Source: Thalassospira lucentensis MCCC 1A00383 = DSM 14000
GTDB lineage: Bacteria; Pseudomonadota; Alphaproteobacteria; Rhodospirillales; Thalassospiraceae
Direction: 5' to 3'
Length of the DNA stretch: 64,000 nt
Assembly: GCF_000421265.1 (NCBI RefSeq)
Contig: NZ_ATWN01000003.1
Location: 186,001 to 250,000 of the forward strand
The notes under the pieces are model-generated. The model made no database searches, was not told the origin of the DNA, and was given only the letters and a program-made list of their open reading frames with translations. The position numbers and the translations under genes were made by a program. Positions 12,472 to 31,698 of this stretch are shown here, piece after piece. The stretch's first letter is position 1, and every line of letters starts with the position of its first letter.

Positions 12472-13233
12472 TTATTCCGCAATCACAAGTTCCGTTTCAA
12501 CGGATTCAATCTGTGCACGTGCTGACGCAGATGGCTGAGCATCAGTGATCACCGCCGAGAACTCAGAAAACGGGGCGAGAACGTGAAGTGCTGTATGATC
12601 GAACCGCAAATGATTGATCAATAAAACCGAACGTGTCGCGGCATCCATCATCCGTCGTTTGGTACGGGTGATGTCATCATCCATGTGATAGACATGGCCA
12701 TCGCCTGCGGCCGGTGTGGAGATAAAGGCAATATCCGCACGCAAGGCAGCAAGGGTCTCCTCCGTCACCCGGCCAACCCAGGCATTATATTTCGCTGAAT
12801 AACGACCACCAAGGGCAAGCACGGTGATCCCAGGTTCCGATTTGAGCTGCTCCATGACGGCATCATTGTTTGTCACCACCGTAAGCGGACGTTTTTCAGG
12901 TAACAGGCTCCCCAGAACCGCCGCAGTAGAACCGTCATTGACCATAACCGTCATGCCCTGCTCCACCCATTCAAGGGCGGCGCGCGCCATACGTTCCTTG
13001 AGATCGTGTCCTTGAAGGTTGCGAAAACGGAAGTCACTTTCAAACTGTGACCCCGGCTCGATCGTTGCTCCACCACGCGTCCGGCGGAGCAACCCTTCGC
13101 CTTCAAGATCATCGAAATCACGGTGAATGGTCATTTTCGACACGCCGAAAGTCTCGGCAAGTTCATCAAGCTGCACGGCACCATCGCGCACCAATGCATC
13201 AAGGATCTGTTGCCTACGGTCATCTCGTTTCAT
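12472..13233 (-). CDS. DeoR/GlpR-family transcriptional regulator of the erythritol locus
   Basis: 253 residues. An N-terminal helix-turn-helix (RRQQILDALVRDGAVQLDEL, then FGVSKMTIHRDFDDLEGEG) is the DeoR signature, with a C-terminal sugar-phosphate-sensing domain of the DeoRC type (VNDGSTAAVLGS, TVVTNN, LGGRYSAKYNAWVG). Last gene of the minus-strand eryABCD operon. In Brucella a DeoR regulator likewise follows eryD, so this is probably the counterpart and may control the tpiA/rpiB branch (inference). The ATG at 13233 (MKRDDRR) has AAGGG upstream; an in-frame TTG at 13260 overlaps the eryD stop and would add nine residues. Confidence 0.9.
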   Translation of the reverse strand: MKRDDRRQQILDALVRDGAVQLDELAETFGVSKMTIHRDFDDLEGEGLLRRTRGGATIEPGSQFESDFRFRNLQGHDLKERMARAALEWVEQGMTVMVNDGSTAAVLGSLLPEKRPLTVVTNNDAVMEQLKSEPGITVLALGGRYSAKYNAWVGRVTEETLAALRADIAFISTPAAGDGHVYHMDDDITRTKRRMMDAATRSVLLINHLRFDHTALHVLAPFSEFSAVITDAQPSASARAQIESVETELVIAE

Positions 13234-13256
13234 GGGGTGCCCTTTTGCGCGGTATA

Positions 13257-14192
13257 TCAATCTAGCAGAGCGCGCGCGGTCCGTTCGTCCGTAATAAGGC
13301 CAGCCACCCTACCCGATCGCAGCACCGCCCGGATCGCATCAATCTTATCCGGTCCGCCCGCAACGGCGACAATATCCTCTTTACGCTCAGGATCATAGCC
13401 CACTGCCAGCGTTCGCGCCGAGAGCGTCGTTTTGACAACAGCCCCATCAGCATGGAAGAAATCCCCAAGCATTTCTCCCTGTGCGCCGGCCGCCGCGATT
13501 TCCTCAATTTCGGCGGGTTCGATCATGCCCGATGATACAAGCTGTGCATCGGCCGTGGTGGTGCCAATCCCGACGATTTTTAAGGTTGCCTCCTGCGCCA
13601 TGCGGAAGACCTCATCCACGCCGCGCTGGGACAGCAGCACTTCACGGTCTTCAACCGTGTTGGCGAAAAACGGGACTGGCATCACATAAGCGCGCGCGCC
13701 GGTCTTTTCGGCAAGCCGATGCATAACATCATGCGGGTTGGCCGAAAAATTGCGGGTCAGGCCACCAAGCAAGGAGACGAAATGAAGGCCCTTGGCATCA
13801 ATCCGGGGAAGCTGGCGTGTGACTTCGGCCAATGTTCGACCATGTCCCAATCCAATAATCGAATGTTCGCCCGCCTCGAACTGGCGTTTAAGATATGCTG
13901 CACCTGCCAGTGCCAGTGCCCGCACGGGCAGTCCTTCTTCGCCGATATCTGGTGCCACCTCGCAGAGCTTAAGGCCGTAAGCCTCAAACAGCCGCGTCTC
14001 AAGTTGAACACACTCGACGATGTCCCCTTCAATCGAGACCTTCACACGCCCGTCAGCGACGGCTTTGGCGATAAGCCGGTGCGCCTTAACCGATGGCAAA
14101 CCAAGCCTTTTTGCAACCTTGGCCTGAGTCAGGCCACCAACATAGTGCATCCAGGCAGCCCGAATGGCGAGCGTTTCGTCAGTTTCGTTCAT
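13257..14192 (-). CDS. eryD: EryD, SorC-family regulator of erythritol catabolism
   Basis: 311 residues of the SorC/DeoR-like class. The N-terminal HTH is AAWMHYVGGLTQAKVAKRLGLP; the C-terminal sugar-binding domain contains GLGHGRTLAEV, LLGGLTRN and VGIGTTTADAQLVSSG. In Brucella and rhizobia EryD represses the ery operon and responds to the pathway. Position directly downstream of eryC and upstream of deoR matches that order. A good ribosome site (GAAGGATG) precedes the ATG. There is a 95-bp gap to eryC, where an extra promoter could lie. Confidence 0.9.
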   Translation of the reverse strand: MNETDETLAIRAAWMHYVGGLTQAKVAKRLGLPSVKAHRLIAKAVADGRVKVSIEGDIVECVQLETRLFEAYGLKLCEVAPDIGEEGLPVRALALAGAAYLKRQFEAGEHSIIGLGHGRTLAEVTRQLPRIDAKGLHFVSLLGGLTRNFSANPHDVMHRLAEKTGARAYVMPVPFFANTVEDREVLLSQRGVDEVFRMAQEATLKIVGIGTTTADAQLVSSGMIEPAEIEEIAAAGAQGEMLGDFFHADGAVVKTTLSARTLAVGYDPERKEDIVAVAGGPDKIDAIRAVLRSGRVAGLITDERTARALLD

Positions 14193-14287: not shown

Positions 14288-15220
14288 TCAAAGTTTAAGC
14301 GACGACGCACCGGTATCGATATACGGCGCCCAGAAAGCAACGCTTTCGGCGATGTTCGGGATGACTTCCCGGTCATTGGGTTCACGTTCCTTAAAGGACA
14401 GCTCAAGACAAATCTCGTTATTTACGGCCCCGCCTTGCGCGAAAGCCGATAACAATGGTTCGGGCTGGATGCGGCCACGGGCATTGAACTCGGCGGTAAA
14501 CGGGCGATGACCTCCTTTGTCCATCAAACTTTGTTTGATGTGAATGATCGGAGAGATTTTTGGGACGGCACGCGCCCAAGCATAAGGATCGAAATCATTC
14601 GGGTCATCCGATGTCACGTCGCCATGATCAATATCGGCCATCATCCACATCGGAATGGCCATGTTCTCAGCCGTCAGCCGGTCTTGAAGCGAAATGCATT
14701 CGGCAATGGTCTCCCCAAATTCGCGGGCGATGCTCATCGGTTCCCAGAAAACATAGTCCAGACCGGCGGCTTTTCCGTGCTCGGCAACTTCGGCCCAACA
14801 ATCAATGGCGACTTTAATCATGTCCTCACGCGACGCGGGGTCATCCTGCTCCCGGTAGGTCAGGATGGCAAATTGCGTCCCCACAGAGGTCCCACCGAGA
14901 TCCGCAATGATGTCAGCAAACGACTTAAACCAATCAACATAATAGCGTCGAACGTCAACATCGGGATGACCAAAGTGGTTCAAGCGCCCATAAGGGCCCG
15001 TCATGCCCGACGTCACGCACACACCGGTGCGCCTCATTGCCGCCCCCATTTGCCGCGTAAGCCGTCGAATCACAGGTGCAGGCCAAGACGGATTGATGAA
15101 TTCATGCGTAAGTTGAAGATCACGAATGCGCAGATCACGAGCCACGCAGTCAATCAGGTCATCGGGATCCGCAAAACGGTTCACCAGCGGATTGGTGTTA
15201 AGAGAAAGGCTCAGGGTCAT
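14288..15220 (-). CDS. eryC: EryC, tetrulose-phosphate isomerase/epimerase of erythritol catabolism
   Basis: 310 residues of the xylose-isomerase-like TIM-barrel superfamily, with strong overall resemblance to EryC (LQLTHEFINPSWPAPVIRRL, DYVFWEPMSIARE, MADIDHGD, HIKQSLMDKGGHRPFT). In Brucella EryC interconverts phosphorylated tetruloses, producing L-erythrulose-1-phosphate on the way to D-erythrose-4-phosphate. The ATG overlaps the eryB stop by one base (TGATG), indicating translational coupling. An upstream in-frame codon at 15253 lies inside eryB and was rejected. Conserved His, Glu and Asp residues in the barrel are consistent with a metal-dependent isomerase. Confidence 0.92.
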   Translation of the reverse strand: MTLSLSLNTNPLVNRFADPDDLIDCVARDLRIRDLQLTHEFINPSWPAPVIRRLTRQMGAAMRRTGVCVTSGMTGPYGRLNHFGHPDVDVRRYYVDWFKSFADIIADLGGTSVGTQFAILTYREQDDPASREDMIKVAIDCWAEVAEHGKAAGLDYVFWEPMSIAREFGETIAECISLQDRLTAENMAIPMWMMADIDHGDVTSDDPNDFDPYAWARAVPKISPIIHIKQSLMDKGGHRPFTAEFNARGRIQPEPLLSAFAQGGAVNNEICLELSFKEREPNDREVIPNIAESVAFWAPYIDTGASSLKL

Positions 15221-16728
15221 CAGGAAACTACCGCGTATGTTGTGTCGAACCATTCAGTGAATGTTGAAATTTCGACCTCGGTCATATCGAGCCGGTGTTT
15301 GGTGCGACGCCAGATAATATCCTCGGCCGTCATCGCCCATTCGTTTTCTACCAGCCAGTTGACCTCTGCCTCATAAAAATGCGCGCCGAAAAAACGTCCC
15401 AACCCGTCAAATCCTGTCGCATTCCCCACAATCCGACGGGTCAATGTCCCATAACGCCGCCCGTAATAGTCGCGTAACGGTCGTGGCATCCACGGGAATT
15501 CAGACTTTAGCGCCTCACCGAATGCAGAATAATCGGCATCGGGCATATCCCCGCCGGGGAGTGCGGCACATTCTGTCCAGTCATCGCCCATATCCGGAAA
15601 GATGTGACGGATTTCGCGCATACCGCGTTCTGCGAGTTCTCTGAATGTTGTAATCTTGCCCCCAAAAATGTTCAGAAGCGGTGCTCCCCCACCCTCGTCG
15701 AGGTCAAACACATAATCCCGGGTAACCGCCGATGGGTTGCCATTACCGTCATCAAACAAGGGCCGAACACCCGAGAATGTCTCGAGAATATCCTCACGCC
15801 GGAGTTTTTCCTTGAAGTAACGGTTCACGCAATCAAGCAGATAGGAAATCTCGTAATCATCAATCGCCACGTCTTCTGCCTTGCCGTCATAGGCAATATC
15901 TGTTGTCCCGATCAGCGCCTTGTCACCTTCATAGGCATTAATAAAGATCACGCGCTTATCGTCATTCTGAACAAGATAGCTGTGCGGCCCATCCCAGAAC
16001 TTTGGCACGATGATGTGACTACCTTTGACAAGTCGCACATTGCGCGTCGAATTGGCACCAGCAACCCGGGTCAGGACATCGGTCACCCACGGGCCTGCCG
16101 CATTCACCAGACATTTCGCAACAAATTTGCGCGTTTCGCCGGTAAGCCTGTTCTGTGTGCTGACATGCCATTTGCCATTTTCGCGACGCGCACTTACTGC
16201 TGGCGTACGCGTCATCACAATCGCACCGCGTTGCGCGGCATCCAGCGCATTTAACGCCACCAGACGCGCATCATCTACCCAGCAGTCCGAATACTCGAAC
16301 CCTCTTTTATACGTATCAAGTAACGGTGCACCCTCGGGATCCCTGTGCAGGTCAAGTGTGCGTGTCCCCGGCAGCTTTTTTCGTCCCCCTAAATGGTCAT
16401 AGAGAAACAACCCCAAACGCACGAGCCAGGCAGGACGGTCCTGAGGCGAATGCGGCAAGACAAAGCGCAAAGGCCAGATAATATGCGGGGCGGCGTTCAT
16501 CAGAACTTCACGCTCAATCAGGGCTTCCCGCACCAGACGGAATTCGTAATATTCCAGATAGCGCAGTCCCCCATGCACCAACTTTCCCGAACGTGATGAC
16601 GTCCCTTCGGCCAGGTCATCCTTTTCGCACAGGGCGACCTTCAGACCGCGACCAGCGGCATCACGCGCAAAGCCTGCGCCATTGATACCGCCACCAATGA
16701 TAAACAGATCGAGTTCCCGGATGCTCAT
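15220..16728 (-). CDS. eryB: EryB, erythritol-phosphate dehydrogenase (GlpD family)
   Basis: 502 residues of the FAD-dependent glycerol-3-phosphate dehydrogenase family. The N-terminal FAD-binding motif is FIIGGGINGAGFARDAAGRG; next come the GlpD signature GTSSRSGKLVHGGLRYLE and a C-terminal DAO_C-like domain. In ery loci the enzyme oxidises erythritol phosphate to the keto-tetrose phosphate and passes electrons to the quinone pool at the inner face of the membrane. A perfect AGGAGG lies at the end of eryA, and the ATG follows the eryA stop by one base. The neighbours distinguish it from housekeeping GlpD. Confidence 0.93.
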   Translation of the reverse strand: MSIRELDLFIIGGGINGAGFARDAAGRGLKVALCEKDDLAEGTSSRSGKLVHGGLRYLEYYEFRLVREALIEREVLMNAAPHIIWPLRFVLPHSPQDRPAWLVRLGLFLYDHLGGRKKLPGTRTLDLHRDPEGAPLLDTYKRGFEYSDCWVDDARLVALNALDAAQRGAIVMTRTPAVSARRENGKWHVSTQNRLTGETRKFVAKCLVNAAGPWVTDVLTRVAGANSTRNVRLVKGSHIIVPKFWDGPHSYLVQNDDKRVIFINAYEGDKALIGTTDIAYDGKAEDVAIDDYEISYLLDCVNRYFKEKLRREDILETFSGVRPLFDDGNGNPSAVTRDYVFDLDEGGGAPLLNIFGGKITTFRELAERGMREIRHIFPDMGDDWTECAALPGGDMPDADYSAFGEALKSEFPWMPRPLRDYYGRRYGTLTRRIVGNATGFDGLGRFFGAHFYEAEVNWLVENEWAMTAEDIIWRRTKHRLDMTEVEISTFTEWFDTTYAVVS

Positions 16729-19489: not shown

Positions 19490-21033
19490 CAGCACTTCAG
19501 ACCATCACACCAGAAACATTCACCGCCGACGAAGTTGTGATGTCGGCCCGCGATGTCGCCAAATTTTACGGCCCGCTTCAGGCATTGAAGGGCGTGAATT
19601 TCGACATCCACCGCGGACAGGTCACGACCCTTTTTGGCGAGAACGGTGCCGGCAAGTCAACATTGATGAAAATCCTGTCGGGCATTATTGCACCGACATC
19701 CGGAGATATCCTGCTTGATGATGAACCCGTGCGTTTTCACGGCGCCAATCATGCTCTGGCGCATGGCATCTCGATCATTCATCAGGAACTGGCATTGGCC
19801 GGAAACCTGAATGTCCGTGACAACATTTTCATGGGGCGCGAAATCCGCACAGCAACCGGTGTCAATTTCGCCGAGGAAGAACGCATAACACGCTCCCTCA
19901 TGGAAGAGCTGGAAGAAGATATTGATCCGCTCACCCCGGTCGAGGAATTGCGCTTAGGGCAGCAGCAAATTGTCGAGATCGCCCGCGCATTACAGGCCAA
20001 GAGCCGCATCCTGATCATGGATGAACCAACCTCCGCCCTGTCCTCGTCCGAGGTCGAAGTCCTTTTCAAGGTCATTAACGACCTGACCGCCAAAGGGGTC
20101 AGCATCGTTTATATCTCCCATCACCTTGAAGAGGCATTGGAGATCACGGACCACGCTGTTGTCCTGCGTGATGGCGAAATGACGGCATGGGCCCCCCGTG
20201 CGGAAATCGACATCGAATGGATCGTGCGCAACATGGTAGGTGAAAACTTCAACCTTGGCGCGCGCCCCAACAGCAAAATGGGCGCACCGGCCCTTACGAT
20301 CGAAAACCTGTGCGTACCCGATGCGTCGGGCAACGGGCTGGTGGTTGATCACATTAACCTTAGCGTCCGGTCCGGAGAGATTGTTTGCATCTATGGGTTG
20401 ATGGGAGCAGGACGGACAGAAATGATGGAATGTGCAGCAGGACGCCTGAAGGCGCAAAGCGGCACTGTAAAACTGCATACGCAGGATGTTTCCAACCTTT
20501 CCATTTCCGAGCGCATCAATGCCGGTCTGGTTCTTGTACCCGAAGACCGTCAACGCGACGGTCTCGTCCAGACAATGACGGTTGGACAAAACCTTTCACT
20601 TTCATCAATTGCGGCCTTTACCCGTGGCCTGTTCACCAGCCGCAAGGTCGAAAGCAAGGTGATCGAAGACTCAATTCGCGAAGTCACGGTCAAAACCGAA
20701 AGCGGTGCCACCATGATTGGCGCGCTTTCGGGGGGGAACCAGCAAAAGGTCGTGATCGGAAAAATGCTCGCCACCCAGCCGGAAGTCATCCTGCTGGATG
20801 AACCTTCACGCGGGATCGACATCGGCGCAAAAGCCGAGGTTTTCAAACTGCTGGCAAGCACCGCTGAAAAACGCGGGCTCGCGGTTCTTTATTCGACTTC
20901 GGAAGTCGGAGAGTGCCTGAGCATCGCGCACCGAATCATCGTCATGAACAGAGGCCGAATTGCGGCCGAATTCGACCATACAGCAACCAAAGAACAGATC
21001 ATGGCCGCCTCTGGCGAAGCCGTGCACCACTAG
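19486..21033 (+). CDS. Sugar ABC transporter, double ATPase subunit (RbsA type)
   Basis: 515 residues with two ABC domains, as in RbsA/XylG. The first has Walker A GENGAGKS near residue 55, signature LRLGQQQIVEIARAL and Walker B ILIMDEPTSAL. The second has the degenerate Walker A GLMGAGRTE, signature LSGGNQQKVVIGKML and Walker B VILLDEPSRGIDIG. The asymmetric second P-loop is normal for this family. It powers import of the polyol at the inner membrane. The chosen ATG overlaps the DUF2291 stop (ATGA); an upstream in-frame codon at 19453 was rejected. By context it corresponds to the ATPase of the eryEFG transporter of rhizobia. Confidence 0.93.
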   Translation: MTALQTITPETFTADEVVMSARDVAKFYGPLQALKGVNFDIHRGQVTTLFGENGAGKSTLMKILSGIIAPTSGDILLDDEPVRFHGANHALAHGISIIHQELALAGNLNVRDNIFMGREIRTATGVNFAEEERITRSLMEELEEDIDPLTPVEELRLGQQQIVEIARALQAKSRILIMDEPTSALSSSEVEVLFKVINDLTAKGVSIVYISHHLEEALEITDHAVVLRDGEMTAWAPRAEIDIEWIVRNMVGENFNLGARPNSKMGAPALTIENLCVPDASGNGLVVDHINLSVRSGEIVCIYGLMGAGRTEMMECAAGRLKAQSGTVKLHTQDVSNLSISERINAGLVLVPEDRQRDGLVQTMTVGQNLSLSSIAAFTRGLFTSRKVESKVIEDSIREVTVKTESGATMIGALSGGNQQKVVIGKMLATQPEVILLDEPSRGIDIGAKAEVFKLLASTAEKRGLAVLYSTSEVGECLSIAHRIIVMNRGRIAAEFDHTATKEQIMAASGEAVHH

Positions 21034-21044
21034 GGAGGCCAGAC

Positions 21045-22079
21045 ATGGCACAAACCACGACTTCTACGCCTGCTGCAGGTGGCATAGACCTCAATATCGG
21101 CAAGATCCTGCTGGAAGGTCGTGCATTCTTTGCGTTGGTGGCGATTGTTATCACCTTCTCGTTCCTGTCACCTGTCTATTTCAGCGGCAGCAACTTCCTG
21201 ACCATGTCATCTCATGTGGCGATCTTTGGCCTTCTGGCCATCGGCATGTTGCTCGTGATCCTGAATGGCGGCATTGATCTTTCGGTTGGTTCGACACTTG
21301 GTCTGTCCGGAGTGGTCGCAGGTTACCTTATGCAAGGTGTCGAAATTCCATCCTCCGGCGTCATTCTGTACCCGCCGGTTTGGGCCGTTGTCGTCCTGAC
21401 CATCGCACTTGGCGCTTTTGTCGGGGCGGTCAACGGGGTGCTCATCGCCTTTTTCAGGGTTCCGGCCTTCGTCGCAACGCTTGGGATGCTCTATGTCGCA
21501 CGCGGTGTTGCGCTGTTGATGACCAATGGTCTCACATACAACAATCTGGGCGGCACCGAAGCACTGGGCAATACCGGCTTTGACTGGCTTGGTTTCAACC
21601 GTATCGCGGGCGTTCCCATCGGCGTGATCGTTCTGGCAGTGGTTGCCCTGATCATTGGTCTTGTCCTGATGCGAACAGCGTTTGGTCGTTGGCTCTATGC
21701 GTCGGGCGGGAACGAACGGGCGGCCGAACTGTCGGGCGTACCTACCCGTGGCGTGAAAGTTTCGGTCTATGTGCTGTCGGGTGTTTGTGCCGCCATTGCC
21801 GGGCTTGTGCTTTCCTCACAGCTGACATCCGCAGGTCCGACCGCCGGCACCACTTACGAACTCACGGCCATCGCAGCAGTAGTAATCGGCGGGGCGGCAC
21901 TTACCGGGGGGCGTGGCAACGTACGCGGCACGATGCTCGGCGCCTTTGTAATCGGCTTTCTGAGCGATGGCCTCGTCATTATCGGCGTTTCTGCTTACTG
22001 GCAAACCGTCTTTACCGGTGCGGTGATCGTGCTCGCCGTGCTGCTTAACAGCCTTCAATACGGCCGTTCCGGCCGATAA
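21045..22079 (+). CDS. Sugar ABC transporter permease (RbsC type)
   Basis: 344 residues, very hydrophobic, with 8-10 membrane segments of the BPD_transp_2 family. The family signature LLVILNGGIDLSVGSTLGLS lies near residue 70, and ELTAIAAVVIGGAALTGGRG near 275 is the coupling region that meets the ATPase. It forms the translocation channel for the periplasmic binding protein cargo. GGGAGG directly precedes the ATG, which follows the ATPase stop by 11 bp. By context it is the erythritol permease (EryF-like). Confidence 0.93.
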   Translation: MAQTTTSTPAAGGIDLNIGKILLEGRAFFALVAIVITFSFLSPVYFSGSNFLTMSSHVAIFGLLAIGMLLVILNGGIDLSVGSTLGLSGVVAGYLMQGVEIPSSGVILYPPVWAVVVLTIALGAFVGAVNGVLIAFFRVPAFVATLGMLYVARGVALLMTNGLTYNNLGGTEALGNTGFDWLGFNRIAGVPIGVIVLAVVALIIGLVLMRTAFGRWLYASGGNERAAELSGVPTRGVKVSVYVLSGVCAAIAGLVLSSQLTSAGPTAGTTYELTAIAAVVIGGAALTGGRGNVRGTMLGAFVIGFLSDGLVIIGVSAYWQTVFTGAVIVLAVLLNSLQYGRSGR

Positions 22080-23383: not shown

Positions 23384-24415
23384 TCAGCTTACTGCCATTG
23401 CCTCAAGCGACAACGGTTTAATACGGTCGGCGTGACCGGCGGTCCCAAAGGCTTCGAACCGTGATTTGCACAGCTCGGTCATCAGGGCGGTGCCTTCCTT
23501 AAGGTACTTCCGTGGATCAAACTCCCCCGGATTTTCCGAAAGAACACGCCGCACGCCCGCCGTCATGGCCATGCGGTTGTCTGTATCAATATTCACCTTA
23601 CGTACCCCGGAACGAATACCGCGCTGGATCTCGTCGACCGGCACACCCCAAGTGGGTCGCATGTCGCCCCCAAAATTGTTAATCACCTGACGCAAGTCGT
23701 CAGGCACCGATGAAGAGCCATGCATGACCAGATGCGTGTCTGGTAAGCGGCGGTTGATTTCTTCAATGACAGTCATTGCCAAGATATCGCCATCGGGCTG
23801 ACGGCTGAACTTATAGGCACCGTGACTTGTCCCCATCGCGACGGCCAAGGCATCAACACCCGTCTCGCGCACGAACCGTTCGGCTTCTTCGGGGTCGGTC
23901 AACAATTGCTCGCCTGACAGCTTCTCGGTGGCACCATGACCGTCTTCCTGATCCCCCATACCGGTCTCAAGCGATCCGAGAACTCCCAACTCGCCCTCAA
24001 CCGAAACACCGCAGGCATGCGCCATTTCCACAACGCGTGCGGTGATGTCACGATTGTATGCGTAATCGGCCGGGGTTTTGCCATCACTTTCAAGCGAACC
24101 ATCCATCATCACGGATGTAAAACCGTGCTGGATCGCAGTAGCGCAAGTCGCCAGATTGTTCCCGTGATCAAGATGCATGCAAACCGGAATTTCCGGAAAG
24201 GTTTCGACAAGCCCGTCAATCAACCTTGCCAGCAGTTTATCGCCCGCATAGGCACGCGCCCCGCGTGAGGCCGCAAGGATCACCGGCGCATTTGCTTCGC
24301 GCGCCGCTGTCATGATTGCTAGCCCCATTTCCATGTTCGAGATGTTAAATGCCGGTACGGCATAACCGTGTTCTGCGGCATGGTCGAGCAATTGGCGAAG
24401 CGTAATGCGTGCCAT
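23384..24415 (-). CDS. fba: Class II fructose-bisphosphate aldolase
   Basis: 343 residues of the zinc-dependent class II family, Calvin-cycle (CbbA-like) subtype. Zinc and catalytic motifs are present: CMHLDHGN near residue 80, [19 protein letters not shown] and VMHGSSSVP, then NIDTDNR. It condenses dihydroxyacetone phosphate with glyceraldehyde-3-phosphate, and many members accept erythrose-4-phosphate to give sedoheptulose-1,7-bisphosphate. Last gene of the minus-strand operon, 3 bp after fbp, with GGAGGAGAA at the end of fbp. Its presence beside erythritol genes suggests a role in erythrose-4-phosphate assimilation. Confidence 0.93.
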
Positions 24416-24418
24416 AAG

Positions 24419-25396
24419 TCAATTCTCCTCCGAGAGATATCTTGCGATGATGTCGACCTCTTCGCGTGCGCCAAACACAAGCGGTACATTTTGATGCGGT
24501 GTTGCGGGCATCAGGTCGAGAATACGGTTGGTCCCATCGGTGGCGCGACCGCCGGTTGCCTCGATCAGACAGGCAATTGGAACGGCTTCATAGGCAAGCC
24601 TCAATCTTCCCTCACGGTAACCGTCACGCCGATCTGCCGGATACATAAACGCCCCGCCCTTTAACAGAATACGGTGCAATTCCCCGACAGCTGCGGCCAG
24701 CCATCTCATATTAAAATTGCGTCCACGCGGACCATCCGCACCGGCGCGCAAATCGGACGCCCACGCCTGCAGGCCCGGCGACCAATGTCGTTCGTTCGAG
24801 GCGTTATAGGCAATTGTTCCCGCCTCGCTCTTTAGCTGAATATCGACTGCAGTCATTTTGAAATCACGCCCATCATATGTGGCGATATGGACGCCCTGCC
24901 CGGCGGTAAACCCAAAATCCAGCGAATGGCCAAACGATGCATATCCGGCAGCAACCGCTTCGGAACCCTTACGGCAAAAGTTCGCAGGTCCCGTTGGGTA
25001 AATGACAAACAACATGCCAAGCGGCGCACCAATACCAATTGATCCAGAGCCATCTATCGGATCAATTGCAATATCGTAATTGCCATTGGCATCAAGGACT
25101 TCAACTGCTTGGGCTTCTTCGGACAAAAGGTGACGAACACCACACCCCCTCAAAGCAGCAATAATGTGATCATGTGCACCGACATCCAGCGCCTTTTGCG
25201 CATCGCCACTTTCATTGTGGCCACATGGTGCAGCAGGATCACCAGGCAATTTCCCGGCGGCAAGGCGCGCGGCAATGGCCGGCAAAGCATTGGCGATTGC
25301 ATCCAACAAACTGCCCAATTCGCCCGTCGGTAGACAGGCTTTTAGCATTGCGGCATCGGCGGCACGGTCATTTGGCAAAATCAGCATGTTCAACAT
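24419..25396 (-). CDS. fbp: Class I fructose-1,6-bisphosphatase (possible SBPase)
   Basis: 325 residues of the class I FBPase family. The metal site IDPIDGSGSIGIGAPLG is near residue 120; the substrate-binding RGRNFNMRWLAAAVGELHRILLKGG and GGRATDGTNRILDL are conserved. It hydrolyses the C1 phosphate of fructose-1,6-bisphosphate, and Calvin-cycle-type relatives also act on sedoheptulose-1,7-bisphosphate. Lies between rpiB (54-bp gap) and fba (3-bp gap). The start at 25396 has only a weak ribosome site; a second ATG three codons later is possible. Confidence 0.92.
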   Translation of the reverse strand: MLNMLILPNDRAADAAMLKACLPTGELGSLLDAIANALPAIAARLAAGKLPGDPAAPCGHNESGDAQKALDVGAHDHIIAALRGCGVRHLLSEEAQAVEVLDANGNYDIAIDPIDGSGSIGIGAPLGMLFVIYPTGPANFCRKGSEAVAAGYASFGHSLDFGFTAGQGVHIATYDGRDFKMTAVDIQLKSEAGTIAYNASNERHWSPGLQAWASDLRAGADGPRGRNFNMRWLAAAVGELHRILLKGGAFMYPADRRDGYREGRLRLAYEAVPIACLIEATGGRATDGTNRILDLMPATPHQNVPLVFGAREEVDIIARYLSEEN

Positions 25397-25450
25397 CCGT
25401 CGTCAAAGGTGGGTCAGACACCATTGGTGCCGAACCTGCGATCCGTTGAC

Positions 25451-25912
25451 TTACGCTGTATGGTATTTTGCATCAACAGCGTCGATGGCCTGAACGTTGG
25501 TTGCCGACTTTCCTTGTGGATCAAACACCGCTGACAGAAACGCATCGGCGATATCCTTGGCAAGTTCCACACCGACAACACGTGCACCCATTGTAATGAT
25601 ATGGGCATTGTTCGATGTTGCGGCCTTGCCCGCAGAATAGGTGTCATGCGCCTGCGCTGCGCGAATGCCTGGAACCTTGTTTGCAGCAAGGCAAACCCCG
25701 ATACCAGTACCACAGCAAAGAATGGCACGATCATAGACCCCCGCCTTTACCGCCGAAGCCACCCGGTCCGAGAGATTGGCATAGTAATCGTCCGGCCCGG
25801 CTTCGGTCCGCGAGGCTTCGGTCACATCGTAATCCGGGTTGTTGCTTAGATACTCAGCCAATGCCTTGGCCAGTCCCTCGCCAGCACTGTCGCCAGCCAC
25901 TGCGATTTTCAT
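25451..25912 (-). CDS. rpiB: RpiB-type isomerase (erythrose-4-phosphate isomerase, EryI-like)
   Basis: 153 residues of the LacAB/RpiB family with the active-site motif [16 protein letters not shown] near residue 65. RpiB interconverts ribose-5-phosphate and ribulose-5-phosphate. The paralogue in Brucella ery loci (RpiB/EryI) instead converts D-erythrulose-4-phosphate to D-erythrose-4-phosphate, and that is the likely role here. The ATG overlaps the tpiA stop (ATGA) and has a strong GGAGGAAA, showing tight coupling with the preceding isomerase. Confidence 0.9.
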
Positions 25913-26694
25913 ATCGTTTCCTCCATATTGACCTGCGCGTTCAGCGCAGTGTCACAACGCTTAAGAATGTCCAAATACCCGTCCACGTCCCACGCTGAGC
26001 GCCCGATAAACAGGCCATCAATATGCGGACACGTGATCAGCTCGGCACAATTCCCGGGATTGACTGATCCGCCATAAAGACACGGCACGCGGCGGCCCAG
26101 CACGTCTTCGGCAACTTTGATAATTTCTGCCTGACGTGCATCGGCATAATCCGATGTCGCAGGAATACCGTTCTCACCGATGGCCCATACCGGCTCGTAA
26201 GCAAGCCAGATTTCAGCCGCTTTCTGGCAATCCGTCAGCTTGGAAAGCGCACCGCGCACTTGTTTGGCGAGAACCTCGGAAGCCCGGCCCTTTTCGCGAT
26301 CTTCAAGCGTCTCACCGATACAAATCAGCGGAATCAGACCGTGCTGAACCGCAGCTTCCGTTTTCAGCCCCACCGTCTCATCCGTTTCGTTGAAATGCGC
26401 GCGACGCTCCGAATGCCCCAATTCAACAAGATCGAGGCCACATTCAACCAGCATTGGCGCGGAAATCTCACCGGTCCAGGCACCCTGAACGGCCCAATGC
26501 ATGTTCTGTGCCCCCACCAGCACGGATGTCTTCGCCAACATGTCCTTGACTTGCCGGGTCGCGGTGAAAGGCGGAATAACAAATGTCTGAATAGAAGGTG
26601 AAAGATCGGCTGACGCCAGCCCCTTTGCCCAGCTCAGCGCTTCGGGCAACGTCTTGTTCATTTTCCAGCTGGTGCCGATCCAAACCTTGGGCAT
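25909..26694 (-). CDS. tpiA: Triosephosphate isomerase paralogue (TpiA2/EryH-like)
   Basis: 261 residues, TIM fold. The catalytic set is recognisable: WKMNKT (Lys near 13), [11 protein letters not shown] (His near 100), [12 protein letters not shown] (Glu near 170) and YGGSVNPGN. In Brucella the second TIM (TpiA2/EryH) interconverts L-erythrulose-1-phosphate and D-erythrulose-4-phosphate. Grouping with rpiB inside the ery locus points to that function and not to the housekeeping enzyme. First gene of the operon; GGAGGAAA lies before the ATG. Confidence 0.9.
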
Positions 26695-26829
26695 GGCAAA
26701 TATTTCCTCCGTCTTGGTTCGGAAGAAATAACATTTATCTCACATTATTCAACATTATTTTTGTTATTTTGTTATTTTTAATTGTTCACAAGAGGCGCTA
26801 CTGCTAGCTTTCAGACAGAGGAGGACCCT
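26695..26829. promoter_or_regulatory. Divergent promoter region tpiA operon / tkt
   Basis: A very AT-rich 135-bp spacer. TGTTATTTT occurs twice in close succession (26762 and 26770) and AATAACA occurs in the opposite sense near 26727. The motif resembles TGTAATTTTTT in the eryA/transporter spacer, so both control regions may be bound by the same regulator, the DeoR protein being the best candidate. Confidence 0.45.
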
Positions 26830-28836
26830 ATGAACAATCAATCACAAATCGCGGCCGCAGCCGCCAAAGACCCTGAAAACTTCGCACTGGCCAACTGTCT
26901 GCGCGCCCTTGCCATTGATGCTGTGAACACGGCCAATTCCGGGCATCCGGGCGCCCCAATGGGCATGGCGGATGCGGCGACAATGCTCTTTCGCAAACAC
27001 CTGAAATTTGATGCGTCAGCACCCGACTGGCCGGATCGTGACCGGTTCATCCTGTCGAATGGCCATGCATCAATGCTGCTTTATGGGCTGCTGCATCTGA
27101 CGGGCTATGCCGACATGACTCTTGATCAGATACGCAATTTCCGTCAGTGGGGCTCCATCACAGCCGGCCATCCCGAATGGGGTCATGCAAAAGGGGTTGA
27201 AACCACGACCGGCCCCCTCGGACAGGGTCTTGCAACCGCCGTTGGCATGGCGCTGGCTGAACGTGCACTCGCCGCAGAATTTCCAGATCTTGTCGATCAC
27301 CGTACCTGGGTGATGCACGGCGACGGGTGCCTTCAGGAAGGCATCGGTCAGGAAGCAATTTCACTCGCGGGGCATCTTGGCCTTGGCAAGCTCAATCTGC
27401 TTTATGATGACAATGACATCACCATCGACGGCCCAACATCAATCTCATTTTCAGAAGATATCCCGGCTCGCTTAAAAGCATGCGGCTGGCACGTCATCAC
27501 GTGTGACGGACATGATGCAAAAGCCTTGGACGCAGCAATGACAGCAGCCAAAGCCGAAACCAAGCGCCCATCCCTCATTGCCATGAAAACGACAATCGGT
27601 TTTGGCTCTCCCAACCGTGCAGGCACCGCCAAGGCACATGGTGCCCCGCTTGGCGAAGAAGAAGGCGCACTTGCCAAGGCAAACTTGGGATGGGATTCCA
27701 CGCCCTTTGAAATCCCGACCCAGCTTGCCGCCAACTGGCATGCCATCGGCACACGCGGCACCGATGCCCGGATAGCCTGGGAAGCCAAACTGGCCGCGTC
27801 GGAGCATTCAGAAAGCTTTACCGCCCGCGTCGCAGGACATCTTCCAGAAACATACGAACGTGCAGTGGCAATGGCACGTGCCTGCCTTTTTGAAAAACCA
27901 CAGACGGTTGCAACCCGGAAAGCCTCACAAATCGCCCTTGAACACCTTACTGAAGCCATCCCCGCAATGATCGGTGGCAGTGCGGACCTCACCGGCTCAA
28001 ACCTGACCCGCGTCCCGGCTGTTGACGGCCAATTCACGGCCGAAAATCCCGGAAGGTATATTGGTTATGGGGTGCGTGAATTTGGCATGGCCGCCGCGAT
28101 GAACGGACTGGCATTGCATGGCGGGCTCAAGCCATATGGTGGTACCTTTCTAGTGTTTTCTGATTATGCCCGCAACGCCATCCGCCTTGCCTCCTTGATG
28201 GGACTTGGCGTGACATATGTCATGACACACGATTCCATCGGTCTTGGAGAGGACGGACCGACACACCAACCTGTTGAACATCTCGCATCTTTGCGCGCCA
28301 TTCCCAACCTCAACGTTTTCCGTCCGGCGGATGCGATCGAAACACTCGAAGCCTGGGACATTGCGGTAAGGTCAGAGGGCACGCCATCTCTGCTGGCACT
28401 CTCCCGTCAGGACGTACCGCAACTGCGCCAAGCCGGATCTGAAAACCTCACCCGGTGCGGTGCCTATATTATCCGCGAGTTTGGCAAGGAACGTGACATA
28501 ACACTTCTCGCCACCGGTACGGAGGTCTCACTGGCGGTTGAGGCCGCAGAGATTCTTCAAGCAGAAGGATACGCATCGGCGGTCGTCTCAATGCCGTGCT
28601 GGGAACTTTTCGACGCACAGCCCGAAACCTATCGCGAAGAAGTACTGGGCTCAGCACCACGCATCGCGGTTGAAGCTGCCTCAGCCTTTGGTTGGACACG
28701 CTATGTCGATCGCGAAGCAGATGTCATTGGCATGCCCGGTTTCGGTGCATCGGCCCCGGCTGAACGCCTTTACGCCGAGTTCGGCATCACCACCGAGGCA
28801 ATCGTCGCAAGAGCGAAAACAGTAATCGCAAAATAA
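26830..28836 (+). CDS. tkt: Transketolase
   Basis: 668 residues with the full transketolase architecture. The N-terminal thiamine-diphosphate domain has ANSGHPGAPMGMADAA, SNGHASMLLYGLLHLTGY, GPLGQGLATAVGMA and HGDGCLQEGIGQEA. The pyrimidine domain has YGVREFGMAAAMNG and DSIGLGEDGPTHQPVEHL; a C-terminal domain follows. It moves two-carbon units between sugar phosphates, linking erythrose-4-phosphate with xylulose-5-phosphate, fructose-6-phosphate and triose phosphate. The ATG at 26830 has AGAGGAGG. Divergent from the tpiA operon and last gene before the tRNA, so it belongs to the ery island and is probably additional to a housekeeping copy. Confidence 0.94.
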   Translation: MNNQSQIAAAAAKDPENFALANCLRALAIDAVNTANSGHPGAPMGMADAATMLFRKHLKFDASAPDWPDRDRFILSNGHASMLLYGLLHLTGYADMTLDQIRNFRQWGSITAGHPEWGHAKGVETTTGPLGQGLATAVGMALAERALAAEFPDLVDHRTWVMHGDGCLQEGIGQEAISLAGHLGLGKLNLLYDDNDITIDGPTSISFSEDIPARLKACGWHVITCDGHDAKALDAAMTAAKAETKRPSLIAMKTTIGFGSPNRAGTAKAHGAPLGEEEGALAKANLGWDSTPFEIPTQLAANWHAIGTRGTDARIAWEAKLAASEHSESFTARVAGHLPETYERAVAMARACLFEKPQTVATRKASQIALEHLTEAIPAMIGGSADLTGSNLTRVPAVDGQFTAENPGRYIGYGVREFGMAAAMNGLALHGGLKPYGGTFLVFSDYARNAIRLASLMGLGVTYVMTHDSIGLGEDGPTHQPVEHLASLRAIPNLNVFRPADAIETLEAWDIAVRSEGTPSLLALSRQDVPQLRQAGSENLTRCGAYIIREFGKERDITLLATGTEVSLAVEAAEILQAEGYASAVVSMPCWELFDAQPETYREEVLGSAPRIAVEAASAFGWTRYVDREADVIGMPGFGASAPAERLYAEFGITTEAIVARAKTVIAK

Positions 28837-29031: not shown

Positions 29032-29267
29032 AGGCTATATGGGTGCGTGCTGCACCCCCATCGACGGGCGGGATAATAGCTGTAATTTTCGTGGGGTCAA
29101 TGGGGGTTTATGCAAAAATGCAAGGATCCGGCCCACAATGAACTGCAGCGTTGCGATTAGGGGCAAAATACGCTTTGATCGGCGCGTCTTTTGCGGGTAC
29201 GAACCCGGCACATATCGAATTTCGATCAACTCATAAAACAACACTTAGATTAGAAGGCGCACCCGCC

Positions 29268-29855
29268 GTGCTTCGCAGCCTGTATGACTGGACCATGAAT
29301 CTTGCCGCCCACCGCCACGCGGGGTTGGCATTGTTTTTCATTGCTGCGATTGAAAGCTCGGTCTTTCCGATTCCACCCGATATTCTTTTGATCCCAATGA
29401 TCATTGCCGCACCGACCAAGGCATGGCGCTATGCGCTGATCTGTCTTGTCGGGTCGGTTCTTGGCGGGATGGTTGGCTATGGCATAGGCTACTTCCTGTT
29501 TGAAGCCGTAGGCCAACCCGTTCTTCAGCTTTATGGTTATGCCGCAAAGTTTGATCAATTCCGCGACTATTATAATGAATGGGGTGCCTGGGCGGTATTT
29601 ATCGCCGGTGTGACACCGTTCCCCTATAAAGTCATCACGATCCTGTCGGGGGTTACGGCCCTTGATCCTGTTGTCTTTACCGTTGCCTCGATCTTTGCGC
29701 GTGGATTGCGGTTCTTTGTCATTGCCGCCCTGATTTGGAAGTTCGGTCCGGCCATTCGCGATTTTATCGAACGGCGATTGGGCCTCCTTTTCACCATATT
29801 TGTTGTGGTTCTTATTGGTGGCTTTGCCGCGATCAAACTTGTGCCGCATGGTTAA
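29268..29855 (+). CDS. YqaA/DedA-like (VTT domain) inner-membrane protein
   Basis: 195 residues with about five hydrophobic segments and the VTT/SNARE-associated signature: ESSVFPIPPDILLIPM, GSVLGGMVGYGIGY, GVTPFPYKVITILSGV. The family includes YqaA and DedA, linked to membrane homeostasis and lipid-carrier flipping. The GTG at 29268 (MLRSLYDW) was chosen because AGAAGG lies upstream and the family begins here; the open frame extends upstream without conserved sequence. Followed after 48 bp by dsbB, probably in one transcript. Confidence 0.85.
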   Translation: MLRSLYDWTMNLAAHRHAGLALFFIAAIESSVFPIPPDILLIPMIIAAPTKAWRYALICLVGSVLGGMVGYGIGYFLFEAVGQPVLQLYGYAAKFDQFRDYYNEWGAWAVFIAGVTPFPYKVITILSGVTALDPVVFTVASIFARGLRFFVIAALIWKFGPAIRDFIERRLGLLFTIFVVVLIGGFAAIKLVPHG

Positions 29856-29903
29856 GGCCGTCCCCGCCCAAAACAGCATCCACGCAATACGGACATCTTG
29901 ATA

Positions 29904-30407
29904 ATGAAACAGCACCGTACCCGCACAATTTCAGCCTTTCCACTGATCGCACTTTTTCTGGTATCGGTTGGCAGCCTTGGCTTTGCCTTTTATGCGCAAT
30001 ATGTCCAGAAGCTTCTGCCGTGCGTTTTATGCCTGTATCAGCGCATGCCATTTTATGGTGTCGCGGGACTTTCGGTTATTGCGTTATTGCTGCTGCGCTT
30101 TCCGGCTGCCGCGCGGTTTATTGTTTATCTGTGTGGCATTACGTTTGCAGTCGGCACCGCAATTGCGTTTTATCACGTCGGCGTACAAGAACTTTGGTGG
30201 CAGGGACCAGCAATGTGCGGCGGCGTTGAAAGTGGTGCCAGCTCAGTTGCCGACCTTAAGGCGCAACTCATGGCGCAGCCGATTATCCGCTGTGACAAGA
30301 TCGACTGGAAACTGTTTGGTATCACCATGCCAACGGTCAATTTGTTCTTTTCTGCGGCATTGACGGTCTTTTGCCTGATCTCACCATCACGCTGGATGAA
30401 GAAATAA
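29904..30407 (+). CDS. dsbB: DsbB-family disulfide bond formation protein
   Basis: 167 residues with four membrane helices. It has both DsbB cysteine pairs: CVLC after the first helix (near residue 37) and Cys in AMCGG plus IIRCD in the second periplasmic loop. It re-oxidises DsbA-type thiol oxidases and passes electrons to quinone. The ATG at 29904 is preferred to a TTG two codons earlier. A strong terminator follows. Confidence 0.92.
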   Translation: MKQHRTRTISAFPLIALFLVSVGSLGFAFYAQYVQKLLPCVLCLYQRMPFYGVAGLSVIALLLLRFPAAARFIVYLCGITFAVGTAIAFYHVGVQELWWQGPAMCGGVESGASSVADLKAQLMAQPIIRCDKIDWKLFGITMPTVNLFFSAALTVFCLISPSRWMKK

Positions 30408-30454
30408 ACCATACAAAATCACACCTTTGATGTGATAGCGGTTTACGCACAGTC

Positions 30455-30486
30455 AAAACCCGCCTGACACCTCAGGCGGGTTTTTT
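30455..30486 (+). terminator. Rho-independent terminator after dsbB
   Basis: AAAACCCGCCTGA pairs with TCAGGCGGGTTTT, followed by a T-run; about 50 bp after the dsbB stop. Confidence 0.92.
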
Positions 30487-30545
30487 CACAACACCACACA
30501 CCTAAAAAGCGAACAATACCGCGCAAAATGAACAAATACTCGATT

Positions 30546-30564
30546 GATAATGCGAATTGTTATT
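30546..30564. promoter_or_regulatory. Fur-box-like site
   Basis: GATAATGCGAATTGTTATT resembles the Fur consensus GATAATGATAATCATTATC at 14 of 19 positions by my alignment. It lies about 100 bp upstream of the AraC gene and fits iron control of the siderophore-uptake pair. Confidence 0.5.
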
Positions 30565-30661
30565 GTTTGCGGGATATTCCCGGTTATATTCAGTCAGCGA
30601 TTCTTGGCGATTCCGCACGAGATTTTTTTTACACCACACGGACCAGCTTGAATTGACCGAC

Positions 30662-31549
30662 ATGACATTCCATCCACACATGACCAGCCAGATCGAAGGT
30701 ATTTCCCTTCGTGATGATCTGCGTTTCCGTCGCTGGAATGCAGCCATTACCGATCTATGGCATGTCGAATGTGAACAGGAAGCTGGCGGGACATACGTTT
30801 CGCAAGCCCCGCGTCTGGTTGCCTTTCTTGACTGTGTTGGCGACGCCCGCGTTCAGGTCAAGACTGCGGGTAATGAACTTCGTCAGGATCAGCATGGTCA
30901 GGGATGCCTGTCCTATATTCCGGCGGGCATGGAAGTTTCTTCTGAAATTCTCGGCAAATGCCGGCTACGTCATCTTGATCTCCATCTTGATATCGACGCG
31001 ATTGAAACCAGTCTTGGCACAACGGTTGATCGTACCGCACTGGAAACCCCGCGCATCGGGTTTTGCGACCCGCGCATCAATGCATTGGTCCGGCTGATTG
31101 CCGATGATCTTGAAAACGGCATGTCCGGGCCGCAGATTTACGGCGACGGGCTTGTAACCGCCCTGACCGCTGCCTTGCTTGAACCGCGCAAGCCCGAGAC
31201 CTTACCGCGCAAACGCGGCAAACTTGCCCCGCATCACTTGCGCAAATCGGTTGCCTATATTGAACAAAATTGCGGTCGCACCATCCGTCTGGATGAACTT
31301 GCCCAGTTGACCGGGCTTTCCCAGTCCTATTTTTGCTCGGCATTTCGCGCCTCAACCGGCATGCCACCACAGCAATGGCAGATGAAGGCACGGGTCGAAC
31401 GTGCCATGGACCTTCTAAGCCAGAGCAGCACATCGCTTGCCAATGTTGCCGCCAGCGTCGGCTTTGCTGACCAAGCCCACCTCACCCGTGTTTTCCGCCG
31501 GGTCGTCGGAACCACCCCCGGTGCATGGCGCAAAGAAACCGCCGCCTGA
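30662..31549 (+). CDS. AraC-family regulator of siderophore uptake
   Basis: 295 residues. The N-terminal 175 form a ligand-binding region without an identified domain. The C-terminal AraC/XylS double HTH includes RTIRLDELAQLTGLSQSYFCSAFRASTGMPPQQW and SLANVAASVGFADQAHLTRVFRRVVGTTPGAWR. It sits upstream of and in line with a TonB-dependent siderophore receptor, a common pairing in which the regulator senses the ferri-siderophore and activates the receptor gene. The ATG at 30662 (MTFHPHMTSQ) was chosen; the frame upstream covers the Fur-like site and has no conserved sequence. A second ATG six codons later is possible. Confidence 0.88.
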   Translation: MTFHPHMTSQIEGISLRDDLRFRRWNAAITDLWHVECEQEAGGTYVSQAPRLVAFLDCVGDARVQVKTAGNELRQDQHGQGCLSYIPAGMEVSSEILGKCRLRHLDLHLDIDAIETSLGTTVDRTALETPRIGFCDPRINALVRLIADDLENGMSGPQIYGDGLVTALTAALLEPRKPETLPRKRGKLAPHHLRKSVAYIEQNCGRTIRLDELAQLTGLSQSYFCSAFRASTGMPPQQWQMKARVERAMDLLSQSSTSLANVAASVGFADQAHLTRVFRRVVGTTPGAWRKETAA

Positions 31550-31565
31550 AATTAAACCAAAATTC

Positions 31566-31593
31566 GTTCAATACACCCAAATCCAGTTCAATA
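31566..31593. promoter_or_regulatory. Direct repeat, candidate AraC operator
   Basis: GTTCAATA occurs at 31566 and 31586, 20 bp apart (about two helical turns), between the AraC gene and the receptor gene. Direct half-sites with this spacing are typical of AraC-type activators. Confidence 0.4.
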
Positions 31594-31698
31594 TTCACAA
31601 CCCTCTGACGTGATATCGAAAGGCCATCATGGAAGATGGCCCGCAGGTTCCCGCCAAGCTGGTCGTCGTAAAAGACAACCGACACAGGGAATTGCCAA

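What the first reader, a model, noticed from the sequence alone, without database searches (positions are those of the whole stretch)
23384..28836. Erythritol pathway packaged with aldolase, FBPase and transketolase: possible transaldolase-free (SBP) route
Known Brucella/rhizobial ery loci end at tpiA2 and rpiB, which yield erythrose-4-phosphate. Here rpiB is followed in one operon by class I FBPase and CbbA-like class II aldolase, with transketolase divergent. Aldolase could join erythrose-4-phosphate to DHAP giving sedoheptulose bisphosphate, FBPase/SBPase would release sedoheptulose-7-phosphate, and transketolase would make pentose phosphates, mimicking the Calvin cycle.
Basis: inference. 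Interest (0 to 1): 0.65.

Follow-up and report, generated by a model that had tools for sequence, protein, structure and literature searches.

The report
Erythritol locus with built-in transaldolase bypass
A marine bacterium carries its genes for eating the sugar alcohol erythritol together with an extra aldolase, phosphatase and transketolase that most likely turn the four-carbon product into seven-, five- and six-carbon sugars without transaldolase, a route already shown in Brucella but here packaged as one gene cassette that in some related bacteria is replaced, in the same position, by a transaldolase gene.

Summary
In a Thalassospira genome, eryH (tpiA2), eryI (rpiB), class I fbp and class IIB fba form one tight operon (4-bp overlap, then 54 and 3 bp). 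A transketolase gene is divergent, and the rest of the erythritol locus lies next door. These are extra copies: the genome also has another Fba (class IIA), GlpX, another Tkt and a TalC-type transaldolase. In the genus, fbp and eryC occur in the same 4 of 29 genomes. The proposed sedoheptulose-bisphosphate (SBP) route is very likely but not new chemistry. Brucella has erythritol-induced fbp-fba in its erythritol cluster (2012); in 2024 its Fbp was shown to hydrolyse SBP, and Fba or Tal to be needed for growth on erythritol. 'Transaldolase-free' is wrong for the genome: 19 of 19 genomes with this Fbp lineage have Tal. In 20 erythritol loci scanned, 13 hold fbp-fba, 4 hold tal, 3 neither fbp nor tal, none both; one slot behind tkt holds fbp-fba in one genus and tal in two others. 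Related modules occur in rhizobial plasmid operons without RuBisCO. Verdict: new variant of a known kind. No enzyme activity was tested.

The parts
12472..13260 (-). eryR, DeoR-family regulator (ORF start uncertain)
   Evidence: NCBIfam DeoR-type hits below cut-offs; position and homology in related ery loci
13257..14192 (-). eryD, SorC/DeoR-type sugar-binding regulator
   Evidence: NF053881/NF011947 hits below cut-off; 68% identical to the gene annotated EryD in Marinovum
14288..15253 (-). eryC, TIM-barrel tetrulose-phosphate isomerase/racemase (ORF start uncertain)
   Evidence: no NCBIfam hit; 81% identical to the gene annotated EryC in Marinovum
15220..16728 (-). eryB, FAD erythritol-phosphate dehydrogenase (GlpD-like)
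   Evidence: NF009906, 821 bits
16730..18331 (-). eryA, FGGY kinase
   Evidence: PF00370/PF02782
18635..19489 (+). DUF2291 lipoprotein of the transporter operon (ORF start uncertain)
   Evidence: PF10054
19453..21033 (+). eryE, sugar ABC transporter ATPase (ORF start uncertain)
   Evidence: PF00005, two stretches
20913..22079 (+). eryF, ABC permease (ORF start uncertain)
   Evidence: PF02653
22089..23120 (+). eryG, periplasmic binding protein (ORF start uncertain)
   Evidence: PF13407
23384..24415 (-). fba, class IIB (CbbA-like) ketose-bisphosphate aldolase; proposed SBP synthase
   Evidence: TIGR01521 above cut-off; 60% identical to the aldolase of the C. necator cbb operon
24419..25396 (-). 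fbp, class I bisphosphatase of a lineage often tied to erythrose-4-phosphate-forming genes; proposed SBPase/FBPase
   Evidence: PF00316/PF18913; tree; loop DPIDGSGS
25451..25912 (-). eryI (rpiB-like), D-erythrulose-4-P isomerase making erythrose-4-P
   Evidence: NF051858 just above cut-off
25909..26694 (-). eryH (tpiA2)
   Evidence: PF00121, NF000722
26695..26829 (.). divergent promoter region between eryH and tkt; no operator identified
26830..28836 (+). tkt, second transketolase (likely ATG start; ORF opens at TTG 26782)
   Evidence: TIGR00232 above cut-off; 58% identical to the other Tkt of the same genome

Best explanation
This is an erythritol locus with its own disposal module for erythrose-4-phosphate (E4P). 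EryA, B, C, H and I make E4P. Fba joins E4P to dihydroxyacetone phosphate, giving sedoheptulose-1,7-bisphosphate. Fbp removes one phosphate irreversibly, giving sedoheptulose-7-phosphate. Tkt then gives two pentose phosphates, and Tkt with more E4P gives fructose-6-phosphate and glyceraldehyde-3-phosphate. With housekeeping Rpe, Rpi and Tpi the sum is 3 E4P + H2O -> 2 F6P + Pi, with no transaldolase step. The route runs beside the cell's own transaldolase; Fba and Fbp probably also make F6P from triose phosphates. Shown here: the genes, their packing, the extra copies, conserved linkage, and the alternation with tal in the related loci scanned. Inferred: substrates, flux, co-transcription and induction by erythritol.
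For: (1) Extra copies: class IIA Fba, GlpX, a second Tkt and Tal are elsewhere in the genome. (2) In the genus, Fbp and EryC occur in the same 4 of 29 genomes, with the cassette syntenic in the other three. (3) Linkage to the E4P-forming isomerases: 18 of 31 rows of the Fbp clade (17 strains) lie in loci with eryH and eryI and 0 of 31 with phosphoribulokinase, against 16 of 30 with phosphoribulokinase outside the clade. (4) Alternation: of 20 ery loci that hold eryABC-type genes and eryH-eryI in the stretch scanned, 13 carry fbp-fba and no tal, 4 carry tal and no fbp or fba, 3 (Rhizobiaceae) carry no fbp or tal. For the 10 of the 13 whose genome was searched, tal is on another contig in 9 and 202 kb away in our own. 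Roseinatronobacter has eryI-eryH-eryR | tkt-fbp-fba | eryD-eryC; Marivivens and Aestuarium have eryI-eryH-eryR | tkt-tal | eryD-FeADH-eryC. (5) The module recurs without eryABC in two rhizobial plasmid operons (tkt-fbp-fba-tpi-rpiB) and an Agrobacterium plasmid (fbp-fba-deoR-tpi-rpiB); the two rpiB proteins tested (S. fredii, Agrobacterium) pass the D-erythrulose-4-P isomerase model. (6) Literature: Brucella Fbp hydrolyses SBP; delta-tal grows on erythritol; delta-fba delta-tal does not (PMC11005471). E. coli given eryABCHI grows nearly three times denser when talA+tktB, talB or tktA is overexpressed, so E4P disposal limits growth (PMC10190533, passages).
Against: No activity, expression or mutant data exist for these proteins. 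The genome has a transaldolase, so the bypass is not obligatory; in Brucella the bypass mutants grew on erythritol through Tal, and delta-tal showed a lag. Fba and Fbp could serve only gluconeogenesis. In 8 of 19 genomes with this Fbp lineage there is no EryC match, and 10 of the 31 clade rows are an fbp without fba beside it. The three Rhizobiaceae ery loci read carry no fbp or tal, so a dedicated module is not needed to use erythritol. tkt was found in 9 of the 13 fbp-fba loci and 2 of the 4 tal loci. The fbp-fba and tal loci were mostly found with those genes as bait. No shared operator was found.
Confidence: 0.72

Rival explanations
1. The fba-fbp pair is only a gluconeogenic booster. Triose phosphates from erythritol are joined to fructose-1,6-bisphosphate and hydrolysed to F6P, and E4P itself enters through Tal and Tkt.
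For: This was the reading of the Brucella transcription data (PMC3522698, passages). Tal is in the genome. The NCBIfam models matched by Fba and Fbp are named for FBP.
Against: GlpX and class IIA Fba should already give that step. fbp-fba and tal alternate in the same slot, which a pure F6P role does not predict. The pair is also linked to E4P-forming isomerases in operons without eryABC. In Brucella the bypass supports growth on erythritol when Tal is missing.
Confidence: 0.2
2. A remnant of a Calvin-cycle (cbb) operon that became attached to the ery locus.
For: CbbA-like aldolase, CbbF-like phosphatase and transketolase are a cbb-type set; in the midpoint-rooted tree the nearest rows outside the clade are PRK-linked.
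Against: No PRK or form I RuBisCO match in the window. 0 of the 16 PRK-linked Fbp fall inside the 31-row clade, support 100/100. All 31 have G where all 30 others have S in the metal loop.
Confidence: 0.05
3. The single housekeeping copies happen to lie beside ery genes.
For: The class I Fbp is the only one of its family in the genome.
Against: Second Fba, GlpX and second Tkt. No match to this Fbp in 25 of 29 genomes of the genus.
Confidence: 0.02

Closest known systems
Brucella erythritol cluster BAB2_0364-0378 and its Fba/Fbp(-Bbp) SBP bypass (PMC3522698, PMC11005471)
   Same: eryABCD, eryR-H-I, transporter, and fbp-fba in one erythritol-induced cluster; E4P + DHAP -> SBP -> S7P as alternative to Tal
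   Different: In Brucella fbp-fba are on the opposite strand from eryR-H-I, and its fba is required for gluconeogenesis; the word transketolase does not occur in the 2012 paper. Here fbp-fba follow eryH-eryI in one operon, a tkt is divergent, and Fba, FBPase and Tkt all have second copies elsewhere.
SBP pathways that replace transaldolase: cellulolytic clostridia (PMC7029132, listing and start of abstract only) and the SBPase variant of the RuMP cycle in Bacillus methanolicus (PMC7092467, listing and start of abstract only)
   Same: SBP as the way round transaldolase
   Different: clostridia rely on 6-phosphofructokinase (title); B. methanolicus on a GlpX-type enzyme (as cited in PMC11005471); neither is described there as tied to erythritol or to a class I Fbp
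Calvin-cycle cbb operons (e.g. C. necator pHG1, P. kondratievae)
   Same: aldolase, class I FBPase and transketolase of the CbbA, CbbF, CbbT kind; SBP chemistry
   Different: no RuBisCO or PRK in the window; separate Fbp clade
Rhizobium/Sinorhizobium/Shinella ery loci (three read)
   Same: eryABCD-R-H-I and EryEFG transporter
   Different: no fbp, tal or tkt in the stretch read; an fba lies about 12.6 kb from eryC in R. johnstonii

Membership tests
Brucella-type erythritol (ery) locus | EryA kinase, EryB dehydrogenase, EryC, EryD together | tested here: met
   (EryC and EryD by homology to genes annotated so in Marinovum)
Brucella-type erythritol (ery) locus | EryH (TpiA2) and EryI (D-erythrulose-4-P isomerase model NF051858) | tested here: met
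   EryI 242.3 bits against 240; EryH PF00121
Brucella-type erythritol (ery) locus | growth on erythritol and conversion to E4P | not testable with these tools
   no strain data
SBP transaldolase bypass | ketose-bisphosphate aldolase, bisphosphatase and transketolase encoded with an E4P source | tested here: met
SBP transaldolase bypass | bisphosphatase keeps the class I metal and catalytic motifs | tested here: met
   GD..KALD, SEE, DP.DGS and the E of LIE align with solved FBPases; residue roles recalled
SBP transaldolase bypass | activity on E4P/DHAP and on SBP | not testable with these tools
   shown for purified Brucella Fbp on SBP (PMC11005471)
SBP transaldolase bypass | genome lacks transaldolase (strict 'transaldolase-free' form) | tested here: not met
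   TAL_FSA match, 219 bits; 19 of 19 genomes. The Brucella form does not need this feature.
Calvin-cycle cbb operon | RuBisCO and phosphoribulokinase in the operon | tested here: not met
   no match in the window; the rest of the genome was not searched for them
Calvin-cycle cbb operon | Fbp groups with PRK-linked CbbF | tested here: not met
   separate 31-row clade, 100/100

The most novel reading that the evidence does not exclude
There is a portable, RuBisCO-free disposal module for erythrose-4-phosphate (eryH, eryI, fbp, fba and often tkt) that travels, often on plasmids, between alphaproteobacterial orders. It plugs into several E4P-producing pathways (erythritol; in bean rhizobia perhaps an apionate- or tetronate-type acid pathway) and is interchangeable in place with a tal or tkt-tal unit. 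Its Fbp lineage, marked by a Ser-to-Gly change in the metal loop, would be an SBPase specialised for this job.
Probability: 0.4. Interest if true: 0.6.

Novelty: new variant of a known kind. Interest (0 to 1): 0.47.

Why it matters
If true, Fba plus Fbp and transaldolase are natural substitutes at one gene position. That is evolutionary evidence that the SBP bypass found in Brucella is a general way of feeding four-carbon sugars into central metabolism, in marine and plant-associated bacteria. It would give a ready cassette for engineering growth on erythritol, where E4P disposal is limiting in E. coli, and a phosphatase lineage to test for SBP preference.

Tried and rejected
Housekeeping-only and Calvin-remnant readings were rejected on gene counts and the Fbp tree. 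Shared-operator search: only A/T-rich matches between the eryA/DUF2291 and eryH/tkt promoters and no inverted repeats. The published EryD operator (29 bases, PMC10190533) has its best match in the window outside the locus (18 of 29). Twelve placements reach 17 of 29; two lie in the A/T-rich eryA/DUF2291 region and one over the eryH start (26681). Inside 26695-26829 the best is 15 of 29, rank 160. I take this as inconclusive. Promoter-like and terminator-like counts were below the shuffle means. A class-wide EryC search over 385 genomes gave one strong match, our own genome, and two weak ones, so no statistics. The Fba and Tkt trees have few cbb rows (3 and 2) and long branches; I draw only the weak statement that the module rows lie apart from them. 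The eryH-eryI tree asks for 4 changes among fbp_fba/tal/neither over 24 rows (shuffled mean 6.7, as low in 1 of 200); well-supported branches force only 2 for fbp_fba and 1 for tal, and 7 of 21 inner forks are open, so the number of swaps is not settled. The genome also has a PFK; its cofactor was not resolved. No structure prediction was made: it would not decide substrate use.

Rows dropped or counted twice: L014=L044, L015=L045 and L016=L086 are the same strains (contig lengths); the 61-row Fbp tree holds L016 and L086 as one identical pair. L018-L043 are the 26 best matches outside the genus, out of 112 matching genomes, with only about 1.5 kb of flank. One search scanned 31 loci: 20 were counted; left out were the split P. 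seriniphilus pair (L084, L108) and nine loci without both eryABC-type genes and eryH-eryI (L059, L082, L088, L092, L095, L096, L097, L104, L107). Plasmid regions opened: 26 from hits, chosen by me, and one by accession; most listed hits were not opened, and L095 and L107 carry no annotation. Genes named priA, xerC, uvrA and gap beside housekeeping copies were read by eye from ORFs. Other papers opened in passages and not used for claims: PMC11508834, PMC3141670, PMC12780249.
Full report
What is there. At 12.5-28.8 kb is a Brucella-type erythritol locus: eryR, eryD, eryC, eryB, eryA (-), then DUF2291 and a sugar ABC transporter (+), then fba, fbp, eryI, eryH (-) and a divergent transketolase. 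The minus-strand block eryH-eryI-fbp-fba is packed with a 4-bp overlap, 54 bp and 3 bp between genes, so one transcript is likely; it was not measured. EryI passes the NCBIfam model for D-erythrulose-4-phosphate isomerase by a small margin (242.3 against 240).

Are these spare copies? Yes. The same genome holds a class IIA Fba, one GlpX, a second full-length transketolase beside a gap-like ORF (two further PF00456 matches are weak), one TalC-type transaldolase gene and a PFK. The class I Fbp is the only PF00316 match. Across 29 genomes of the genus this Fbp is in 4 and EryC is in the same 4, and the cassette is syntenic in the other three. In T. marina it sits on a 908-kb plasmid.

Transaldolase. 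The own Tal and the Tal of the Tropicibacter ery locus match TIGR00875, which NCBI names fructose-6-phosphate aldolase. The Brucella tal deletion removes nucleotides 25-597 of the gene, which suggests a short TalC-size gene too, and in that species Tal or Fba is needed on erythritol. So I read these genes as transaldolases; this is inference. All 19 genomes with this Fbp lineage that I searched have a TAL_FSA gene.

Relatives. A pattern scan of the species-genome collection with the four Thalassospira Fbp (two short peptides, so only near relatives) found 17 loci. In 8 of 17 Fbp lies in an ery locus (L044-L047, L049, L051, L053, L055); in 9 of 17 it does not (L048, L050, L052, L054, L056-L060), and one of those 9 has fba behind it (L059). 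EryC is in 11 of 19 genomes tested. Plasmid records add Paracoccus sp. TOH, Roseibium algicola and Roseinatronobacter ery loci with the module. P. seriniphilus has an eryR-H-I-fbp-fba block about 165 kb from its eryABCD on the same plasmid. P. yeei and P. aminovorans have a bare fbp-fba pair.

Alternation with transaldolase. I scanned 31 loci with one protein set. Twenty hold eryABC-type genes and eryH-eryI in the stretch. Of these, 13 have fbp-fba and no tal (window, L044-L047, L049, L051, L053, L055, L080, L081, L086, L091); 4 have tal and no fbp or fba (Tropicibacter L099, Aestuarium L102, Marivivens L103, Marinovum L105); 3 Rhizobiaceae loci have no fbp or tal (L085, L094, L109; L085 has an fba about 12.6 kb from eryC). 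None has both. Stretches are limited (about 10 kb each side for many), but for the 10 of the 13 whose genome was searched, tal is on another contig in 9 and 202 kb away in our own. Tropicibacter also has a lone Fbp of this lineage elsewhere (L050). The sharpest case is one slot: in Roseinatronobacter tkt-fbp-fba, in Aestuarium and Marivivens tkt-tal, each between divergent eryR-H-I and convergent eryD; the last two are near-copies of each other. Bait bias exists, because the two groups were mostly found through Fbp or Tal. As a partial check, the EryC-baited plasmid listings (40 and 60 rows shown of 139 records) include nine non-Rhizobiaceae alphaproteobacterial records. By coordinates, six have Fbp within 10 kb of EryC, two have Tal within 3 kb, and P. 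seriniphilus has its module elsewhere on the plasmid. The three Roseibium/Labrenzia records not opened were not scanned for tal. A 28%-identical Streptosporangium row was left out.

Beyond erythritol. Two plasmids of Phaseolus rhizobia carry tkt-fbp-fba-tpi-rpiB with no RuBisCO or PRK match in the stretch. The rpiB of S. fredii GR64 passes the D-erythrulose-4-P isomerase model at 257 bits. Next to the R. gallicum copy are a kinase of the four-carbon acid sugar family (best model 3-oxo-isoapionate kinase, 282 bits against a cut-off of 700, so not that enzyme by the model) and a BKACE enzyme. An apionate- or tetronate-type source of tetrulose phosphate is a guess. An Agrobacterium plasmid has fbp-fba-deoR-tpi-rpiB, and its rpiB passes the same model.

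Trees. In the 61-row Fbp tree, 31 rows form a clade with support 100/100 that holds all 18 eryH-eryI-linked rows and none of the 16 PRK-linked rows. Thirteen of the 31 rows have no eryH-eryI in the stretch, and 10 of those have no fba either. Two columns are fixed differently between the 31 and the 30 others: G118 for S in the loop DPIDGSGS, and G238 for A. The clade was defined on the same sequences, so this is description, not a test. From recall, that serine lies by the 1-phosphate in known FBPases. Whether the change tunes the enzyme for SBP is unknown.

What is already known. Brucella: fbp, fba, eryI, eryH, eryR and eryABCD are all raised by erythritol (PMC3522698, passages). Brucella Fbp hydrolyses both FBP and SBP, delta-tal grows on erythritol, and delta-fba delta-tal does not (PMC11005471: abstract, sections 21 and 22, passages). 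Geddes et al. 2013 describe an aldolase gene in Mesorhizobium and Brucella ery loci; the word transketolase does not occur in their text (PMC3599248, passages). My paper searches (openly licensed PMC papers only; listings and the passages named here) showed no report of the tkt-containing module or of the tal/fbp-fba alternation. That is weak evidence of absence.

Mechanism and balance (established reactions; their use here is inferred). E4P + DHAP -> SBP (Fba); SBP -> S7P + Pi (Fbp); S7P + GAP -> R5P + X5P (Tkt); 2 X5P + 2 E4P -> 2 F6P + 2 GAP (Tkt), with Rpi, Rpe and Tpi. Sum: 3 E4P + H2O -> 2 F6P + Pi. In E. coli with eryABCHI, overexpressing talA+tktB, talB or tktA raised final density nearly threefold (PMC10190533, passages), which fits E4P disposal as the bottleneck that such modules relieve.

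Verdict. Observation confirmed. The operon form with its own transketolase and the positional exchange with tal make it a new variant of a known kind, and directly testable.

Noticed in passing
L099:10804-11241, L105:11817-12254; also beside the module in L046, L047, L051 and beside fbp in L048, L058, L060: A lumazine synthase gene (RibH2 type; the L099 copy passes NF009084) lies inside or beside several roseobacter ery loci. Its substrate is, from recall, also a four-carbon phosphate; a link to tetrulose phosphates is unexplained.
   Followed up: partly
L104:7002-11896 (S. meliloti Rm41 pRM41A): tpi-tkt-tal genes with a sugar ABC transporter, followed by ribB; tal is 82% identical to the tal of ery loci.
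   Followed up: no
L053, L055, L099, L102, L103 between eryC and eryD: An iron-containing alcohol dehydrogenase gene sits between eryC and eryD in several Rhodobacterales loci but not in the window.
   Followed up: no
L052, L054, L056, L057, L058, L060 (genomes without an EryC match); L083, L093 (EryC not tested): Copies of this Fbp lineage on Salipiger/Alloyangia/Mesobacterium replicons with no fba or ery genes beside them; function unclear.
   Followed up: partly
G019:C110:3983-4942 and G303:C23:288542-289471: EryC matches flagged with one stop each inside the match; pseudogene, assembly error or a match running past the end was not checked.
   Followed up: no
window 29151-33873: Downstream of tkt: a VTT-domain membrane protein, an AraC-type regulator and a TonB-dependent siderophore receptor.
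   Followed up: no
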